IMG/VR virus record: IMGVR_UViG_3300044949_002606
Span: 1 to 57,930 of that record
Length of the DNA: 57,930 nt
DNA from: a virus
Strand: one strand, 5' to 3'
Part shown: one piece after another, positions 2,422 through 54,760 of the stretch
How positions within the stretch are numbered: position 1 is the stretch's first letter
Layout of the letters: each line of letters opens with the position of its first letter
The notes under the pieces: model-generated
What the model saw: only the letters and a program-made list of their open reading frames with translations
What the model was told of the DNA's origin: nothing
The model's database searches: none
Position numbers and translations under genes: made by a program

Positions 2422-3414
2422 ATGGCGTATTCTGGCGTAGTAGGCGAAACAACATTCAACGCGATGAAGGTGGTGGACCACGCCTTCAGGCGTTGCCGCC
2501 TGCCCGCGCAGGTCATCACCTCGGAGATGCAGACCTACGCGCTGGAGGCGCTGCACCTGATGCTGGCCGACCTGGCCAACCCGCGGCCCCCGAGCTGGTG
2601 CATCGAGCGGCAGGTGTACCCGCTGTACCAAGGACAGCCGCTTGTCACGTTGGCCGCGGGCACCGTGGCGGTGCTGAACGCCAACCTGCGCACGATGCAG
2701 GAGCTGACCGGCGTCACCGTCACCACCAGCACCGCGTACACCGTCGACTTCAACGCGCAGGACGGCGGCGTCGGCACTGTGAACTCGGTGGGCGTGAAGT
2801 GGTCGGCCGCGGCGGTCGACCTGACGTTCCAGACCTCGGCCGACGGGCTGGCCTGGACCACGGTCGGCACCCAGACCACCACAGCCGCCGCGGGCGAGTG
2901 GACGTGGTCAGACATCGTGCCCGCCAACGCGGCGCGGTTCTTCCGCTTCACGAGCACGGCGCCTTGGGCGGCGACCGAGGTGTACCTGGGCACGCTGCCG
3001 CAGGAGATCCCGATGGGCGTGCTCAACCGCGACACCTACGTCGCGCAGAGCAACAAGGTGTTCCAGGGGCGTCCGCTCACCTACTGGTTTCAGCGCGACT
3101 TGCCGCGGCCGGTGATGAACCTATGGCCCGCGCCCAACGCTGCGGCCGAGACGCAGCAGCTCATCGTCTGGCGCCAGCGCAACATCATGGACACCGAGAA
3201 CCTGCGCCAGGAGGTCGAGGTGCCGCCGCGGTGGCTGGAGGCGATTGTCAATGGGCTGGCTGCCCGGGTCGGCGCTGAGACGCCCAGCGTGGATGCGGGC
3301 CTTGTGCCGGTGCTGGAGCAGCGAGCGGCAACGTCGCTGCAGCGCGCCTGGGACGGCGACAACGACGGCTCGCCCACGTACATCAACCCCGGCATCGGGT
3401 GCTACACGCGATGA
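2422..3414 (+). CDS. Head-to-tail adaptor, P22 gp4-like, with an inserted discoidin-like domain
   Basis: A 330-residue protein. The N-terminal part (about 1-95) holds helices around LEALHLMLADLANPRPP. The C-terminal part (about 195-330) holds NRDTYVAQSNK, GRPLTYWF, NLWPAPN and IVWRQRNIMD, the pattern of P22 gp4-like adaptors that bind the portal and extend the tail. Between them, about residues 100-190 read as a beta domain (VKWSAAAVDLTFQTSADG, AARFFRFTS) resembling an F5/8 type C domain. ATG 2422 has GAGG upstream; the longer in-frame opening lies in the leader of P1 and is not used. The stop overlaps the next start (ATGA). Confidence 0.75.
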   Translation: MAYSGVVGETTFNAMKVVDHAFRRCRLPAQVITSEMQTYALEALHLMLADLANPRPPSWCIERQVYPLYQGQPLVTLAAGTVAVLNANLRTMQELTGVTVTTSTAYTVDFNAQDGGVGTVNSVGVKWSAAAVDLTFQTSADGLAWTTVGTQTTTAAAGEWTWSDIVPANAARFFRFTSTAPWAATEVYLGTLPQEIPMGVLNRDTYVAQSNKVFQGRPLTYWFQRDLPRPVMNLWPAPNAAAETQQLIVWRQRNIMDTENLRQEVEVPPRWLEAIVNGLAARVGAETPSVDAGLVPVLEQRAATSLQRAWDGDNDGSPTYINPGIGCYTR

Positions 3415-3719
3415 GCCGGTTCATCGACCCCGCGGGCCAGCCCACCTACGGGCTCGGCATCTGCGCCCGCTGCTCGCGCAAGTTCCGGCTGGCCGAGCTG
3501 AACCCGGACGCCAACTACCCCAACCTCATGGTGTGCCGTGAGGACAGCGACGACTACGATCCGTACCGCCTGGCCGCCAAGCGCGAGGACCAGGTGGTGT
3601 TGCCTTTCGTGCGGCCGGATACCCCCGTGACCACCAACCCGTCGGGCCTCATCACGCAGGACGGGACGCAGTTCGTCATCTCAGAAGACGGCCAGCGGTT
3701 CATCTACTTGGTGGACTGA
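3411..3719 (+). CDS. Small phage protein with an N-terminal zinc-ribbon-like CxxC
   Basis: A 102-residue protein coupled to the adaptor by an ATGA overlap. Residues about 17-45 hold ICARCSRKF and a later Cys (MVCRED), a possible zinc knuckle. The rest is acidic and ends in short beta-prone stretches (GTQFVISEDGQRFIYLVD). It lies between the adaptor and a fibre gene, so a small structural or chaperone role is plausible. No named family is recognised. Confidence 0.7.
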   Translation: MSRFIDPAGQPTYGLGICARCSRKFRLAELNPDANYPNLMVCREDSDDYDPYRLAAKREDQVVLPFVRPDTPVTTNPSGLITQDGTQFVISEDGQRFIYLVD

Positions 3720-9714: not shown

Positions 9715-10347
9715 ATGAGCTACACCATGACCTACGACAGCTTGCTGGTCGACGTGCGTCGCTACCTGGAGCGTGGGTTCACCGCAGAAAGCGATCAGCT
9801 CGTCTACGAGCAACTGCCCCGGCTCATCACGCTGGGCGAGCGACGCTGCGCCCGCGAACTCAAGGTTCAAGGCTTCATTCGCGCGGTGCAAACCCCGCTT
9901 CAAGCCGACGTGGCCGTCTACCTGAAGCCCGACCGCTGGCGCGACACCGTCAGCATGGCCGTGGACGGGAGGCCCATCCAGGCCCGCTCGTACGAGTACT
10001 GCCGCGGCTACTGGCCCGACGAAGCCGAAACGGGCACGCCCGAGTTCTACGCGGACTACGACTACCAGCATTGGTTGCTCACGCCCACGCCGGCCACGGC
10101 GCAGACGCTGGAGGTCTTGTACTACGAGCAGCCCGCGCTGCTCGGCGACGACTCGCAAAGCAACTGGCTCACCGAGTACGCGCCGGACGTATTGCTGTAC
10201 GCGGTGTTGCTGGAGGCGTCGCCCTTCCTGAAAAACGACCAGCGCATTGCCACGTGGCAGGCGATGTATGACCGCGCCGCGCAGGCGCTCAGCGGCGAGG
10301 ACCTCAAGCGCATACTGGACCGCGCCGCCCAGCGGAGTGAAGCCTGA
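9715..10347 (+). CDS. Second head-tail adaptor-like protein (tail tubular A/gp6-like)
   Basis: A 210-residue mainly helical protein: TYDSLLVDVRRYLERGF, EQLPRLITLGERRCARELK, PDRWRDTVSM and, near the end, EYAPDVLLYAVLLEASPFLKN with WQAMYDRAAQAL. This order of motifs is typical of phage adaptor proteins that extend the portal ring (gp6 or tail tubular A type). It follows promoter P2 and precedes a fibre-like gene, repeating the order seen at 2422-5033. The ATG at 9715 has GGGAG upstream. The family call is from remembered patterns. Confidence 0.7.
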   Translation: MSYTMTYDSLLVDVRRYLERGFTAESDQLVYEQLPRLITLGERRCARELKVQGFIRAVQTPLQADVAVYLKPDRWRDTVSMAVDGRPIQARSYEYCRGYWPDEAETGTPEFYADYDYQHWLLTPTPATAQTLEVLYYEQPALLGDDSQSNWLTEYAPDVLLYAVLLEASPFLKNDQRIATWQAMYDRAAQALSGEDLKRILDRAAQRSEA

Positions 10348-11553: not shown

Positions 11554-13086
11554 ATGCCCGGCGACAACAAAACCATCGTGCTCCGGTCCACCCCGGGCAT
11601 CAAGCGCGACGGCACCAAGTACGAAGGCGACTTCTACGTCGACGGCCGCTGGGTGCGGTTTCAGCGCGGGCTGCCGCGCAAGATCGGCGGCTACCGCTCG
11701 ATCAGCAAGTACCTCACCGAGATCAGCCGCGGGTTCACCACGTTCACGCAGCAGCTGTTGCAGTACTGTCACTCGGGCAGCGCCGCGCGGCTTGAGCGGT
11801 TCACCATCGACGCCAGCAAGAACAGCTCCATCATCAGCAACCGCACCCCCGCCGCGTTGACCGCCTCGGCCCAAAACCGCTGGATGTTTCAGTACATGTT
11901 CGACAGCTCGTCGACGCAAAACTCGCTCATCGCTCACGTGGCGCCGAACGGAGCTTGTTTGTGCAATGACGTGGGTGGGCAGATCTTCATCGGTGACCTG
12001 CTGGGCACCAGCGCGTTGACGCAGATCACGCTGCCCGCGGGGGCCAACGCCACCGGGGGCATCGTGGTGCTGCACCCGTACTTGTTCTACTACGGCACGG
12101 CCGGCGTCCTCGGGCATTCGGTGGCCGGCGAGCCGACCGACCTGACCGGCGCGGGCAGCGGCATCGCCCGCCCCTGGGGCCAGAAAATTGTGAAAGGCAT
12201 GCCGCTGCGCGCCGGGGCGGGCTCGGCGCCTGCGGGTTTGTTTTGGGCGTTTGACGCTGTGATTCGGGCGACGTTTTCGGGCGGCGCCACCGTGTTCCAG
12301 TACGATGTGATTGCCACCGACACCTCGATTTTGTCTTCAGACTGTGTGGTGGACTACGACGGCGTGTTCTACTGGGCCGGGGTGGACCGGTTTTTGATGT
12401 TCAACGGCGTGGTGCGGGATGTGCCCAACTCGCTGAACCTGAACTACTTCTACGACGGGTTGAACCCCAACCAGCACAGCAAGGTGTTCGCCTTCAAGGT
12501 GCCGCGGTACAGCGAGATCTGGTGGTGCTACCCGCGCGACGACGCCACCGAGTGCACCCACGCCGTCATCTACAACGTGCGCGAGAACACCTGGTACGAC
12601 ACCGAGCTGCCCGCCTCGCTGCGGTCGGCGGGGGCGTTCAACAACGCCTTCGCCGCGCCGCTGCTCACCGACGCGGTGCCCACCGCCAACGGCTACCGCG
12701 TTTGGATCCACGAGCAAGGCGCCGACCAGATCGACGGCCAGAGCATCGAGCCGATTCAGTCGTACTTTGAGACCGCCGACCTGTCCACGCTGCCCGCGGG
12801 CGACCCTTCGGCGTTGCGCATCGCGGCGATCGAGCCCGACTTTGTGCAGTCGGGACCTATGAGCGTGCAAATTACCGGCCGCGCCAACGCCCGCGCTCCG
12901 GAGGTGACGAGCACCTCGGTGACGTTCCCGGCCTCGGCCACGCAACCCTACGAGCAAATCGTCACGCTCAAGGAGCAACGCCGCGAGCTGCGTGTGCGCT
13001 TCGAGAGCAATGCCGTGGGCGGCGACTACCAAGCCGGCCAGATCATCGGGCACGTTGCCCCGGGCGACGGCACCATGCTGGGCTGA
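11554..13086 (+). CDS. Tail accessory/DNA stabilisation protein, P22 gp10-like
   Basis: A 510-residue protein. The start RSTPGIKRDGTKYEGDFY with GRWVRFQRGLPRKIGGYR is characteristic of the phage stabilisation family (P22 gp10), which plugs the portal and carries the rest of the tail. The middle reads as a beta-propeller-like series of Trp/Tyr-rich blades (RWMFQYMFDSSS, GVFYWAGVDRFLMFNGV, SEIWWCYPRDD, AVIYNVRENTWYDTELP). The C-terminal beta domain ends DYQAGQIIGHVAPGDG. It is adjacent to the adaptor module, matching the order in podoviruses. Confidence 0.8.
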   Translation: MPGDNKTIVLRSTPGIKRDGTKYEGDFYVDGRWVRFQRGLPRKIGGYRSISKYLTEISRGFTTFTQQLLQYCHSGSAARLERFTIDASKNSSIISNRTPAALTASAQNRWMFQYMFDSSSTQNSLIAHVAPNGACLCNDVGGQIFIGDLLGTSALTQITLPAGANATGGIVVLHPYLFYYGTAGVLGHSVAGEPTDLTGAGSGIARPWGQKIVKGMPLRAGAGSAPAGLFWAFDAVIRATFSGGATVFQYDVIATDTSILSSDCVVDYDGVFYWAGVDRFLMFNGVVRDVPNSLNLNYFYDGLNPNQHSKVFAFKVPRYSEIWWCYPRDDATECTHAVIYNVRENTWYDTELPASLRSAGAFNNAFAAPLLTDAVPTANGYRVWIHEQGADQIDGQSIEPIQSYFETADLSTLPAGDPSALRIAAIEPDFVQSGPMSVQITGRANARAPEVTSTSVTFPASATQPYEQIVTLKEQRRELRVRFESNAVGGDYQAGQIIGHVAPGDGTMLG

Positions 13087-24734: not shown

Positions 24735-26213
24735 TTATCCTTGCGTCGCCGCGACGCGGTCGCCCAGCACGAGTGCGGCGGTACGCTTCTTGCGGCGCAA
24801 ATTCTTGGTGATCTGTTCGTCGATCGTGTTCTCGGCGGCGATGTCGATGTACACGACGTTCTTCTTCGTGCCGATGCGGTGAGCGCGGTCTTCACTCTGC
24901 AGCCGCGTCTCGAGGTTGAAGTCGTTGCTGAAGTAAAACACCGTCTCCGCCGCGGTGAGCGTGAGTCCGATACCGCCGGACTGGGGCTGACCCACGAAGA
25001 CGCGCACATCACCGTTCTGAAACTGATCGACCGCAGCTTCACGGTTGTCGCGGCTCACCCCGCCGTGATACTGCACACACGGGATGCCCGCATCGGTGAG
25101 CGCATCCGAGATCGCGTCCAGCTCCTCGCGGAACCGCGCCCACACGATGAACTTGCCTTCCACGTCCTCGATCGCGTCGAGCAGCGTCTTGAGCCGTGGG
25201 TTGTCCGCGGAGATGTAGCGCACGCCCATCGGGGTGTTCACGTACCCGCTCGTGATCTGCTGCAACTTGATCAGCGCGGCCAACTCGCTGACGGGCAGCT
25301 CGGTGTTGTCGCCGAGCTCGATGCGGAGCTCGTCTTGCATCTTGTCGTAGGCGCGTTGTTGCTGTGCGTCGAGCTCGAACGTGATGGTCTTGTAGATCTT
25401 GTCGGGCAGGTCCAGGCAGTCTTTCTTCAACACGCGGAACGAATTCGGCTCGAGCAGTCGCTGCAGCTTGTCGAGGTTGCGCCACCGCGGCGAGCCGTCA
25501 GGGTTGCGGGCGATCACTTGCGCGTACGCCGCCTTGGGGTTGCGGCTGACCATGTTCTGGATCAGCGGATGCGTGTTGGGCAGCACGTCCGCGTACTCGG
25601 CCACGAACGCCCGGTAGCTCGTGGTGCCGAGCAAGCCACTTTCCAAGAACTCCATCTGCGCGAAGATGTCCACCGGCGAGTTCGTCACCGGGGTGCCGGA
25701 CGCGATGCGCGCGCCGACCGCCATGCGCCTGAGCCGCATGAGCGCCTTGGTGCGCGCGGCGTCCGGGTTCTTGATGCGGGAGCTCTCGTCCAGGATGATC
25801 AGCGCCTTGCCCGAGAGCAAGAACCGCTCGGCGCAGGCGCACCCCTTCTTGGTCACCAGCGCGTCGATGTTCATGGCCAGCACGCGCAATGGCGGCGGCA
25901 CGCCGGGCGGGCGCAGTTTAAACAGCTCTTCGAGCGCCCGCATGTGCCGCGCCCCGGCGCCCGAGCGCCACGCACGCGCGACGATGGTGCCTTCCATGTG
26001 CGCGGGGATCTCGCGCGTGACCCAGTTCAGGTGCACGCCGTTGGGCGCCACGACGAGCACGGAGTCGATGGAGCCCTTGGCGTACAGCCGCTCGGCGTCC
26101 GCGAGCAACGTCCAGGTCTTGCCTGTGCCTTGTTCCATGAACAGCGCATAGGTGCGGCGCCCGACCATGCGTTGGACGGCTTGCAGCTGGTGTTGCATGC
26201 CCTGCGTTTTCAT
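24735..26213 (-). CDS. SNF2-family DNA helicase/translocase
   Basis: A 492-residue superfamily 2 ATPase that moves along double-stranded DNA. Motif I is EQGTGKT (about residues 27-33), motif II is IILDESSRI (about 127-135), motif III is ASGTPVTN. The C-terminal lobe has QYHGGVSRDNREAAV, SGGIGLTLTAAE and SEDRAHRIGT (motifs IV-VI). ATG 26213 overlaps the stop of the upstream nuclease gene by four bases. Phages often pair this helicase with a VRR nuclease. It may clear protein from DNA or drive recombination during replication; that is inferred from the operon. Confidence 0.92.
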   Translation of the reverse strand: MKTQGMQHQLQAVQRMVGRRTYALFMEQGTGKTWTLLADAERLYAKGSIDSVLVVAPNGVHLNWVTREIPAHMEGTIVARAWRSGAGARHMRALEELFKLRPPGVPPPLRVLAMNIDALVTKKGCACAERFLLSGKALIILDESSRIKNPDAARTKALMRLRRMAVGARIASGTPVTNSPVDIFAQMEFLESGLLGTTSYRAFVAEYADVLPNTHPLIQNMVSRNPKAAYAQVIARNPDGSPRWRNLDKLQRLLEPNSFRVLKKDCLDLPDKIYKTITFELDAQQQRAYDKMQDELRIELGDNTELPVSELAALIKLQQITSGYVNTPMGVRYISADNPRLKTLLDAIEDVEGKFIVWARFREELDAISDALTDAGIPCVQYHGGVSRDNREAAVDQFQNGDVRVFVGQPQSGGIGLTLTAAETVFYFSNDFNLETRLQSEDRAHRIGTKKNVVYIDIAAENTIDEQITKNLRRKKRTAALVLGDRVAATQG

Positions 26214-48307: not shown

Positions 48308-50842
48308 ATGGCCGACCAACTCAGACCCGAAGACGAAGAAGACGAGCGCGAGGCCGTCGGCGAGACGCTCTCGCTGGACGGCGAAGAGGAGCTCGAAGTC
48401 GAAGACACCGAGGACGGTGGCGCCGTGGTGCGCATGAAGAACGAGGAGCAGTCGCGCCGCGCGCAGCAGCACTTCGACAACATCGTCGAGGACGTGGACC
48501 CCGCGCGGCTCAGCGCGGCAGTGACTGACCTGCTCGACAAGATCGACAAGGACAAAGAGGCCAGGGAGAAGCGCGACAAGCAGTACGAGGAGGGCCTGCG
48601 CCGCACGGGGCTGGGCGACGACGCGCCGGGCGGGGCGCAGTTCACCGGCGCCAACAAAGTGGTGCACCCGATGCTCGTGGAAGCGTGCGTGGACTTCTCG
48701 GCCCGGTTCATGAAGGAAATGTTCCCGCCCGCGGGCCCTGTCAAGAGCAAGGTGCTCGGCACCCAGGACAAGAAGAAGGTCGAAAAGGCGCAGCGCAAGA
48801 CCGACTTCATGAACTGGCAGTGCACTGAGCAGATGCCCGAGCTGCGGAGCGAGCTGGAGCAGCTGAGCACGCAGTTGCCGCTGGGCGGCGGCCAGTACCT
48901 GAAGCTCATGTGGAGCCGGCAGCGCCAGCGCCCCACGGTGGAGTTCGTGCCGATCGACGACGTGTACCTGCCGTTCGCGGCCACCAACTTCTACACCGCC
49001 GAGCGCAAGACGCACGTGCAGTACGTGACGGCCGCGGAGTACACGCGGCGCGTCCGTTCGGGCATGTACCGCGACGTGGACTTGGGCGTCCCTGAGGACC
49101 CCGAGTTCAGCGCCGCCTCGCGCGCCAACGACAAGATCGAAGGTCGCAAGAGCACCGCCTACAACGAGGACGGACTCCGCACCGTGTTCGAGGTCTGCAC
49201 CGCGCTGGCGCTGGAGGACGGCGAAGACGACGACCCCGCCCCTTACATTCTCAGCATCGACAAGTCCTCCGGCCAGGCGCTGGGCTTGTACCGCAACTGG
49301 GAGCCCGACGACCCGCAGCGCAAGGAGCTCGAGTGGGTGGTGGAGTTTCCGTTCGTGCCTTGGCGGGGGGCCTACCCCATCGGGCTCACGCACATGATTG
49401 GCGGGCTCAGCGGTGCGGCCACCGGCGCGTTGCGCGCGCTGCTGGATTCGGCCCACATTCAGAACATCCCCACACTGCTGAAGCTGAAGGGCGGCCCCAA
49501 CGGCCAGACGCTCAACGTGCAGCCCACCGAGGTGGTCGAGCTGGAGGGCGGGGCGCTCATCGACGACGTGCGCAAGCTGGCCATGCCGATGCCGTTCAAC
49601 CCGCCGAGCCCAGTTCTGTTCCAGCTGCTGGGGTTCTTGGTGGATGCGGGCAAGGGCGTGGTGCAGACCTCGTTCGAGAAGCTCGCCGACAGCAACCCCA
49701 ACCAACCCGTCGGCACCACGCTCGCGATCATCGAGCAGGGCATGGTGGTGTTCAGCTCGATCCACTCGCGGCTGCACAACTCGATGGCGCGGGTGTTCAA
49801 GATACTGCACCGGCTGAACAGCGCCTACCTGACGCACGAGGCGCTCAAAGCCTACGACAACGGGCTGGAGGCGAAGCCCGAGGACTTTGACGGCCCGCTG
49901 GATGTGGTGCCGGTGAGCGACCCGGCGATCTTCAGCGAGACGCAGCGCTTTGCGCAGACGCAGGCGGTGATGCAGCGGGCCGCGACCGTGCCGCAGATGT
50001 ACGACGCGCGCAAGGTGGAGGAGATGTTCCTCCGCGGGTTGAAGCTCGCGCCCGCTGACCTGCTGCAGCCGCAACCCGGCCAGGACGACGTCGACCCCGT
50101 CAGCGAGAACGTGGCCGCAGCGATGGGCCGGCCCGTGTACGTGCTGCCCCGGCAGGACCACATGGCGCACCTGCGCACACACTTGGCGTTCCTCAAGTCG
50201 CCGCTGTTCGGCTCCAACCCGGCGATCGTGAAGACGTACTTGTTCCCGATGGCGCAGCATGTGCGCGACCACCTGCTCAACTACTACCTCACCGAGACCC
50301 ACGACGCCGTGAAGCGCGCCACCGAGGACGAACTCATCCGCGACGACGCCGATCAACAAGCCGAGGTCATTTTGCGGGTGCAGCAGCTCATCGAGCAGCA
50401 ACTGGGCGCCTTCGCGCAGGAGCTGGCGCAGCTGGACCAGGCCGCTCAGCAGTTCAAGCCGCAGCCCCCGATGCCGCCCGACAACTCGATGCAAGTCGCG
50501 CAGCTCAACGCCCAGCTGCAGGGTCAGCTCGCTCAGCAGCGCGCGCAGCTGGACCAAGCGCGGTTGGCACAACAGGCGCAGTCGGAACAGGCGCGCTTGG
50601 GTCAACAGGCGCAAGCCGAGCAGGCCCGGCTGCAGGACAAGCAGCAGGACCGCGCGACCGAACTCCAACGCGAGCAACTACGCCAGCAGGCGGAGGACGC
50701 CCGCCAGCAGCAGTCCGACGCGGTGCGCTACCAAATGAACACCGACGACAACGAAACCGCGCTGCGGCTCGCGGCGGCCGAGATCGCCTCTGGCGAGAAG
50801 GTGGCGGTCAGCACCGGCACCGGTATCAACCCCAACCCCTGA
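48308..50842 (+). CDS. Portal protein, P22-like
   Basis: An 844-residue protein. A highly acidic N terminus (EDEEDEREAVGETLSLDGEE) is followed by a portal core: GGAQFTGANKVVHPMLVEAC, DFSARFMKEMFPP, GQYLKLMWSRQRQRPTVEF and YPIGLTHMIGGLSGAATGAL, typical of podoviral P22-like portals. Residues about 680-790 form a long helical Gln/Ala-rich tail (QQLGAFAQELAQLDQAAQQF) that could be the barrel extension inside the capsid. It forms the ring through which DNA enters and leaves. The terminase, scaffold and capsid genes surround it as expected. Confidence 0.92.
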   Translation: MADQLRPEDEEDEREAVGETLSLDGEEELEVEDTEDGGAVVRMKNEEQSRRAQQHFDNIVEDVDPARLSAAVTDLLDKIDKDKEAREKRDKQYEEGLRRTGLGDDAPGGAQFTGANKVVHPMLVEACVDFSARFMKEMFPPAGPVKSKVLGTQDKKKVEKAQRKTDFMNWQCTEQMPELRSELEQLSTQLPLGGGQYLKLMWSRQRQRPTVEFVPIDDVYLPFAATNFYTAERKTHVQYVTAAEYTRRVRSGMYRDVDLGVPEDPEFSAASRANDKIEGRKSTAYNEDGLRTVFEVCTALALEDGEDDDPAPYILSIDKSSGQALGLYRNWEPDDPQRKELEWVVEFPFVPWRGAYPIGLTHMIGGLSGAATGALRALLDSAHIQNIPTLLKLKGGPNGQTLNVQPTEVVELEGGALIDDVRKLAMPMPFNPPSPVLFQLLGFLVDAGKGVVQTSFEKLADSNPNQPVGTTLAIIEQGMVVFSSIHSRLHNSMARVFKILHRLNSAYLTHEALKAYDNGLEAKPEDFDGPLDVVPVSDPAIFSETQRFAQTQAVMQRAATVPQMYDARKVEEMFLRGLKLAPADLLQPQPGQDDVDPVSENVAAAMGRPVYVLPRQDHMAHLRTHLAFLKSPLFGSNPAIVKTYLFPMAQHVRDHLLNYYLTETHDAVKRATEDELIRDDADQQAEVILRVQQLIEQQLGAFAQELAQLDQAAQQFKPQPPMPPDNSMQVAQLNAQLQGQLAQQRAQLDQARLAQQAQSEQARLGQQAQAEQARLQDKQQDRATELQREQLRQQAEDARQQQSDAVRYQMNTDDNETALRLAAAEIASGEKVAVSTGTGINPNP

Positions 50843-53845: not shown

Positions 53846-54760
53846 ATGGCTACCCCAATGCGTAGTACCGACTTTAGGTCGGTTGTTGAGCCGATCCTGA
53901 ACGAGGTGTTCGACGGCGTCTATGAGCAGCGTGCTGACGAGTGGAAGATGGTTTTCCGCGAGCAGAAGGGCATTCCGCGCAACTACCACGAGGAGCCCGT
54001 CCTGTACGGGTTCGGCGCGGCGCCGGAGCTGCCCGACGGCATGGCTGTGTCGTACCAGTCGGGTGGTGTGCTGTTCCTGCAGCGCTACCTGTACAAGGTG
54101 TACGGCCTGGCCTTCGCGCTGACCAAGGTGCTGGTGGAGGACGGCGACCACATTCGTATCGGCCAGACCTACGCGAAGCATCTCGCGCAGTCGCTGATCG
54201 AGACGAAGGAGACGCTGTGCGCCAACATCCTGAACCGGGCCTTCAACGGCTCGTACACGGGTGGCGACGGTGTGTCTCTGGTTTCCGGCAGTCACCCGAT
54301 CGTGAACGGCACGTTCAGCAATCAGCTCACCACGGCGGCCGCGCTGAGCCAGACGTCGCTGGAGCAGATCCTGATCCAGATCCGCAACGCGGTCGACAAC
54401 AACGGCAAGCGCATTCGGCTCACCCCGAAGAAGATCGTTTCAGGTCCGTCCAACGTCTTCCAGGCCGAGGTGCTGCTTAAGAGCGTGTTGCGCACCGGCA
54501 CCGCCGACAACGACATCAACCCCGTCAAGTCGATGGGGCTGTTGTCCGAAGGCCAAGCCAACCTCTCGCGTATCACGTCGACCACCGCCTGGTGGGTGCA
54601 GACCGACGCGCCGGAAGGCCTGAAGGTGATGATGCGGCGTGGGCTGGAGAAGAGCATGGAGGGCGACTTCGAAACCGACTCCATGCGCTACAAGGCCACC
54701 GAGCGTTATGTGCCGGGTTGGACCGATCCGCGCGCCGTGTACGGCACTGCGGGCGTCTGA
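53846..54760 (+). CDS. Major capsid protein
   Basis: A 304-residue protein. The N-terminal arm is followed by VEPILNEVFDGVYEQRADEW, then YQSGGVLFLQRYLYKVYGLA, NILNRAFNGSYTGGDGVSLV with SGSHPIVNG, and IRLTPKKIVSGPSNVFQAEV. This is the pattern of HK97-fold coat proteins with the G-loop and spine helix of related podoviruses. It is preceded by an AAGGAGG ribosome site, the strongest in the window, and follows scaffold and decoration genes. A hairpin follows its stop. Confidence 0.9.
   Translation: MATPMRSTDFRSVVEPILNEVFDGVYEQRADEWKMVFREQKGIPRNYHEEPVLYGFGAAPELPDGMAVSYQSGGVLFLQRYLYKVYGLAFALTKVLVEDGDHIRIGQTYAKHLAQSLIETKETLCANILNRAFNGSYTGGDGVSLVSGSHPIVNGTFSNQLTTAAALSQTSLEQILIQIRNAVDNNGKRIRLTPKKIVSGPSNVFQAEVLLKSVLRTGTADNDINPVKSMGLLSEGQANLSRITSTTAWWVQTDAPEGLKVMMRRGLEKSMEGDFETDSMRYKATERYVPGWTDPRAVYGTAGV

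What the first reader, a model, noticed from the sequence alone, without database searches (positions are those of the whole stretch)
2422..3414. Head-tail adaptor carrying an inserted discoidin-like domain
The ends of this protein match P22 gp4-like adaptors, but about 90 residues in the middle (VKWSAAAVDLTFQTSADG, then AARFFRFTS) read like an F5/8 type C sugar-binding domain. A carbohydrate-binding domain projecting from the neck ring is unusual; it could aid surface attachment.
Basis: partly seen in the sequence, partly recalled or inferred. Interest (0 to 1): 0.7.

Follow-up and report, generated by a model that had tools for sequence, protein, structure and literature searches.

The report
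Phage neck protein with inserted discoidin domain
A protein of the ring that joins this virus's head to its tail carries an extra, self-contained domain of a fold best known for sugar-binding; the insertion is real and shared by hundreds of related viruses, but in this lineage the usual sugar-binding parts are missing, so it more likely serves as a structural attachment piece.

Summary
The gene at 2422-3414 (330 aa) is a head-tail adaptor of the T7/SU10 type. Residues about 91-194 form an inserted discoidin (F5/8 type C, CBM32/CBM62-like) domain.

Evidence. The full-length model (pLDDT 83) splits cleanly. The core matches solved podovirus adaptors (cyanophage A4, Z 13.2). Residues 91-194 match CBM62 (Z 12.6, 2.2 A, 99 residues) and other discoidins. 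The domain also folds alone. Homologues without it (226-230 aa) align end to end with one ~100-residue gap (E 8e-34). On a core-only tree all insert-bearing proteins lie on one side of one branch (support 100/97). They include Caulobacter phages RW, RLK, KcrB and GB2A.

The carbohydrate reading is not supported for this lineage. The first ~44 Pfam positions are absent, including the calcium motif (0/82 relatives; 65/66 in a sister clade). Selection on the insert is purifying (omega 0.18, loops 0.25, core 0.09), with no sign of receptor-type diversification. A docking role (fibre, second ring or capsid) is my preferred guess; sugar binding remains open.

Extra observation: the window and 34 related records (35 of 35) encode two adaptor-family proteins, suggesting a two-ring neck. 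Kind: new variant of a known kind.

The parts
2422..3414 (+). Head-tail adaptor (phrog_12985 family) with inserted discoidin domain, 330 aa
2422..2691 (+). Adaptor core, N-terminal part (residues 1-90): helices 14-24 and 34-51, then beta strands
   Evidence: model; profile alignment to insert-less homologues
2692..3003 (+). Inserted discoidin / F5-8 type C domain (residues about 91-194), on a two-strand stem formed by strands 81-94 and 184-197
   Evidence: (2yg0_A Z 12.6, rmsd 2.2, 99 aligned); gap
3004..3411 (+). Adaptor core, C-terminal part (residues 195-330): dock-domain strands and helices 269-286, 295-313
3411..3719 (+). Small cysteine-motif (zinc-ribbon-like) protein, 102 aa, start overlapping the adaptor stop; neighbour conserved beside insert-bearing adaptors, with divergent counterparts beside insert-less adaptors
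9715..10347 (+). Second adaptor-family protein (phrog_2941 / PF24175, the family of SU10 gp11), 210 aa
   Evidence: PF24175 E 1e-26; phrog_2941
11554..13086 (+). Putative tail nozzle/hub protein (phrog_3287 virion structural protein)
   Evidence: function inferred from position
48308..50842 (+). Portal protein
   Evidence: phrog_1216 E 1e-14
53846..54760 (+). Major capsid protein
   Evidence: 82% identical to the Caulobacter phage RW protein at that place and 79% to the annotated major capsid protein of ctpbd312; PF10124

Best explanation
The protein is a ring-forming head-tail adaptor whose beta (fibre-dock-type) domain has a discoidin domain grafted into one hairpin loop, so that if it forms the usual dodecamer, up to twelve discoidin domains would stand out around the neck. 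Shown by computation: the two-part fold, the clean insertion, and that one event explains its distribution. Inferred: dodecamer, position, outward direction. Most likely job in this lineage: a fixed protein-protein contact module (bracing or docking tail fibres, the second adaptor ring or the capsid vertex), not a sugar-binding one.
For: Fold and insertion. One branch on the core-only tree. Insertion sits in the beta domain that in T7, SU10 and P-SCSP1u holds tail fibres, and SU10 dock loops project radially (PMC6702177, PMC9509320, PMC10575957). Precedent for a beta-sandwich on an adaptor touching the capsid: R4C Ig-like attachment domain (PMC10276861). Apical calcium/ligand segment absent: PF00754 match starts at profile position 45; AxDx[DN]xxT-type motif 0/82 here against 65/66 in the sister clade. 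Purifying selection on insert (omega 0.18) and loops (0.25), core 0.09. Insert and core divergence are correlated across pairs, r 0.79. A marine relative (HTVC027P) has an unrelated insert in the same region that resembles a tail-fibre module.
Against: No contact partner was identified; the conserved small gene next door is not specific to insert-bearing adaptors. The insert evolves about twice as fast as the core, which also fits an exposed binding surface. A different apical site could bind sugar.
Confidence: 0.5

Rival explanations
1. The domain is a working carbohydrate-binding module: a collar of discoidin domains gives weak, multivalent binding to host surface polysaccharide or environmental glycans and helps attachment.
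For: Closest folds are CBM62, CBM32 and other sugar-binding discoidins; loops vary more than strands; sister clade keeps the calcium-type motif and longer loops.
Against: In the window's clade the segment with the calcium motif is missing, and by inference most galactose-contact positions of CBM32 (E641, F656, H658, W661 in CpCBM32, PMC12926856); no diversifying selection; a shared fold shows no function; many discoidins bind protein or lipid.
Confidence: 0.3
2. The insert is a passenger domain with no essential role, kept as a neutral decoration of the ring.
For: Insert evolves twice as fast as the core; insert-less adaptors work in related phages.
Against: Purifying selection, omega 0.18; present at full length in nearly all window-clade and sister-clade proteins read from the loci; invariant W127, S139, W145, W162, R175, G190.
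Confidence: 0.12
3. The region is part of the ordinary adaptor core (an enlarged fibre-dock jelly roll), not an inserted domain.
For: The T7 fibre dock is itself a small jelly-roll (PMC6702177).
Against: Homologues without it have a complete core; the domain matches discoidins over its whole length while the rest matches adaptors; it folds alone.
Confidence: 0.03

Closest known systems
SU10 gp11 / T7 gp11 / cyanophage A4 and GP4 adaptors (dodecameric head-tail adaptors with fibre-dock domain; PF24175, phrog_2941, phrog_12985)
   Same: Same core fold (9k09_d Z 13.2, 3.9 A, 207 residues; 8jov_2 Z 12.1, 5.6 A, 205; 8zkk_B Z 11.5, 4.2 A, 192); gene lies between capsid and nozzle genes
   Different: A 100-residue discoidin domain in a hairpin of the beta domain; a second adaptor-family gene in the same genome
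CBM62 of C. thermocellum Xyl5A and CBM32 / F5-8 type C (discoidin) domains
   Same: Same fold over 90-104 residues at about 2 A, Z 10-12.6
   Different: About 100 rather than 130-150 residues; lacks the N-terminal calcium/ligand segment; sits inside a virion ring protein
R4C siphophage adaptor with Ig-like attachment domain (PMC10276861)
   Same: Extra beta-sandwich on an adaptor ring
   Different: Ig-like and at the N-terminus; touches the capsid; adaptor core of another type
Pelagibacter phage HTVC027P gp64
   Same: Same adaptor family (phrog_12985 E 1e-49), with an insert in the same region
   Different: Insert unrelated to discoidin, one strand upstream, resembling a tail-fibre module
crAss001 ring proteins R1-R4 (PMC10172136)
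   Same: More than one adaptor-fold protein per genome; rings carry fibre-docking hubs
   Different: Four paralogues and a long barrel; no discoidin domain mentioned in the passages read

Membership tests
T7/SU10-type head-tail adaptor | Helix bundle plus beta dock domain fold | tested here: met
   AlphaFold model matches 9k09_d, 8jov_2, 8zkk_B, 7wmp_m over 185-207 residues
T7/SU10-type head-tail adaptor | Sequence homology to the family (PF24175 / phrog_12985) | tested here: met
   Window protein below Pfam cut-off (15.6 vs 27 bits), but phrog_12985 E 1e-6, insert-less homologues pass the Pfam cut-off (37-52 bits) and align full length to the insert family, E 8e-34
T7/SU10-type head-tail adaptor | Gene between capsid and nozzle genes | tested here: met
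   major capsid gene upstream (across the record ends in the window, on one record in RW), nozzle-like gene downstream
T7/SU10-type head-tail adaptor | Dodecamer bound to the portal clip | not testable with these tools
   Needs a virion structure; a second adaptor gene (9715-10347) leaves open which one touches the portal
   P22 gp4 and Sf6 gp7 are the only sequence hits of the insert-less profile, but E 0.2-0.5; they lack the dock domain present here (PMC9509320)
F5/8 type C (discoidin) domain | Discoidin jelly-roll fold | tested here: met
   Whole and isolated models, Z up to 12.6 at about 2 A over 90-104 residues
F5/8 type C (discoidin) domain | Passes the curated Pfam score | tested here: not met
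   19 vs 28.2 bits; best of 45 relatives E 1e-5
CBM32/CBM62 carbohydrate-binding module | Calcium-site motif of the N-terminal loop | tested here: not met
   Motif 0/82 in this clade, 65/66 in the sister clade
CBM32/CBM62 carbohydrate-binding module | Conserved galactose-contact residues | tested here: inconclusive
   Segment where most should lie is deleted (residues from PMC12926856), placed by inference and not by superposition; CBM32 sites vary (PMC5291390)
CBM32/CBM62 carbohydrate-binding module | Binds sugar | not testable with these tools
   Needs a binding assay

The most novel reading that the evidence does not exclude
These phages build a neck of two stacked adaptor rings outside the crassviruses, and one ring bears a collar of twelve discoidin domains that holds host or environmental glycans, a second adsorption device separate from the tail fibres.
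Probability: 0.15. Interest if true: 0.72.

Novelty: new variant of a known kind. Interest (0 to 1): 0.45.

Why it matters
Adaptor rings are usually seen as conserved plumbing. Here a lectin-type fold has been built into one of them, kept across a large phage group (hundreds of contigs) and present in cultured Caulobacter phages, so its role can be tested directly. Together with the different insert in HTVC027P it shows that the adaptor's beta domain tolerates domain insertion. The paired adaptor genes make the question of multi-ring necks outside crassviruses testable.

Tried and rejected
(1) Discoidin similarity as chance: rejected by profiles, structure and family-wide hits. (2) Region as adaptor core: rejected by insert-less homologues. 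(3) The small protein 3411-3719 as an insert-specific partner: by tblastn it seemed perfect (82/82 and 79/79 with insert, 0/63 and 0/75 without), but the insert-less clades have divergent cysteine-motif or degenerate counterparts at the same place, so the link is not specific. (4) Swapping of the insert between lineages: no sign; one branch explains it and insert divergence follows core divergence. (5) Receptor-type hypervariation: none. (6) First hhalign runs shared sequences between the two sides; only searches are treated as independent (and 106 share no adaptor of the compared kinds). (7) Direct sequence search of the window protein against the PDB gave only chance nanobody hits. (8) A broad mixed alignment was too divergent to scan contigs with. 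(9) Direct profile comparison of the two adaptor families gave E 8e-6 over the beta domain for insert-less members but nothing for insert-bearing ones; the link rests mainly on shared Pfam and fold. (10) Papers on a discoidin or carbohydrate domain in an adaptor: none found in the held library; most subscription papers are not covered.

Full report
What is there. The open reading frame 2422-3414 (+) encodes 330 residues starting MAYSG, a start shared by relatives. The window is a 57,930-base virus record of a tailed phage with a portal (48308-50842), a major capsid protein (53846-54760), tail fibre-like genes, a nozzle-like gene (11554-13086) and ejection-type genes downstream. Short-tailed (podovirus) form is inferred from this gene set.

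Check of the observation. Single-sequence searches give weak hits on both halves: PF00754 F5/8 type C E 0.0016 at residues 118-182, PF22633 E 0.0038, SU10_adaptor E 0.022, all below the curated cut-offs, and phrog_12985 E 1e-6 at residues 194-286. Across 45 relatives, 22 match PF00754 (best 1e-5), 20 match PF22633 and 39 match SU10_adaptor. A profile of the family finds the discoidin-like part of bifidobacterial beta-hexosaminidase at E 5e-4.

Structure. AlphaFold2 with 45 relatives gives mean pLDDT 83, mostly 87-95 across the insert. Foldseek and VIA-align split the model. Residues 9-330 match solved podovirus adaptors: cyanophage A4 9k09_d Z 13.2, 3.9 A over 207; GP4 8jov_2 Z 12.1, 5.6 A over 205; VP1 8zkk_B Z 11.5, 4.2 A over 192. 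Residues 91-194 match CBM62 2yg0 Z 12.6, 2.2 A over 99, AlyQ CBM32, galactose oxidase domain 1, APC10 and neuropilin b1. The isolated domain (residues 84-198) also folds (pLDDT 83) and matches the same superfamily (2yg0 Z 11.6, 2.3 A over 99). The two long strands 81-94 and 184-197 run from the adaptor's beta domain into the insert; I read them as its stem.

With and without the insert. Roseobacter phages CRP-901/902 (226 aa), Manatee Spring phages ct7L0027 (230) and ct2G2228 (220), and hundreds of IMG/VR loci lack the insert. Insert-less and insert-bearing profiles with no shared members align over the whole length at E 8e-34 with essentially one long gap. On a maximum-likelihood tree of the core only, all 37 insert-bearing proteins lie on one side of one branch (100/97). 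Caveat: some outgroup branches are long and the root is unknown, so gain is inferred from the wider family. Insert-bearing loci number at least 316 for the window's clade search and 289 for the sister clade search (only the best 80 of each were kept and read, and the two counts may overlap), plus Caulobacter phages RW, RLK, KcrB, GB2A at 46% identity. The clades differ: the sister clade (ctpbd312 type, 350-360 aa) has a longer domain with the AFDGNxxT-type motif of calcium-binding CBM32/62; the window's clade has lost about 25 residues there. Pelagibacter phage HTVC027P carries an unrelated insert one strand upstream that resembles tail-fibre modules.

Evolution. Among 67 close relatives the insert is more variable than the core (mean column entropy 1.14 against about 0.6) and divergence of the two parts is correlated, r 0.79. 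For 135 pairs with unsaturated core synonymous sites, dN/dS is 0.09 for the core, 0.18 for the insert, 0.11 for its strands and 0.25 for its loops (rough Nei-Gojobori counts, pairs not independent). This is purifying selection with moderately relaxed loops, not receptor-type diversification.

Mechanism. In T7, P-SCSP1u and SU10 the adaptor's beta domain docks tail fibres, and SU10 dock loops project radially and hold the fibre (PMC6702177, PMC10575957, PMC9509320). In R4C an Ig-like domain on the adaptor touches the capsid (PMC10276861). The discoidin insert lies in a hairpin of this beta domain, so I infer that it projects from the ring. Whether this is the same hairpin as the SU10 dock loop could not be settled. 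Sugar binding by CBM32 uses apical loops with His, Arg, Asn and aromatic residues, and the family has a conserved calcium site (PMC5291390, PMC12926856). The window's clade lacks the stretch that would carry the calcium motif and, by inference, most of those contacts. I therefore favour a fixed protein-protein role (about 0.5) over glycan binding (about 0.3); neither is shown.

Two adaptors. The window also encodes 9715-10347, a member of the SU10 gp11 family (PF24175 E 1e-26, phrog_2941). Searching 37 records, 35 have both a phrog_12985 and a phrog_2941 protein; SU10 has only the second and the 40-kb ct2G2228 only the first. The crAss001 paper states that other podoviruses had been seen with only one such ring (PMC10172136). 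A two-ring neck is therefore a plausible but untested prediction, and it means that which of the two proteins touches the portal is not known.

Verdict. This is a real, lineage-wide domain insertion in a virion ring protein: a new variant of a known kind.

Noticed in passing
window 9715-10347 and 2422-3414; relatives: Two divergent adaptor-family proteins in one genome, in 35 of 35 records of this group (phrog_12985 plus phrog_2941); suggests a two-ring neck outside crassviruses.
   Followed up: partly
window 3411-3719: 102-aa cysteine-motif protein whose start codon overlaps the adaptor stop; conserved next to insert-bearing adaptors, with divergent (cysteine-motif or cysteine-less) counterparts next to insert-less ones; no Pfam, PHROG or NCBIfam match.
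   Followed up: partly
L085:5458-6393 (HTVC027P gp64): Adaptor with a different inserted module that matches tail-fibre families (phrog_11439), at a neighbouring loop.
   Followed up: partly
G027:24282-24875 and 24953-25555 (record behind L230): Two adjacent phrog_2941 proteins plus one phrog_12985 protein, so perhaps three adaptor-fold proteins in one phage.
   Followed up: no
window 53846-54760: Major capsid protein shows weak similarity to Mu gpT and to protease-capsid fusion models (PF10124 E 5e-5, NF045541 E 1e-11).
   Followed up: no
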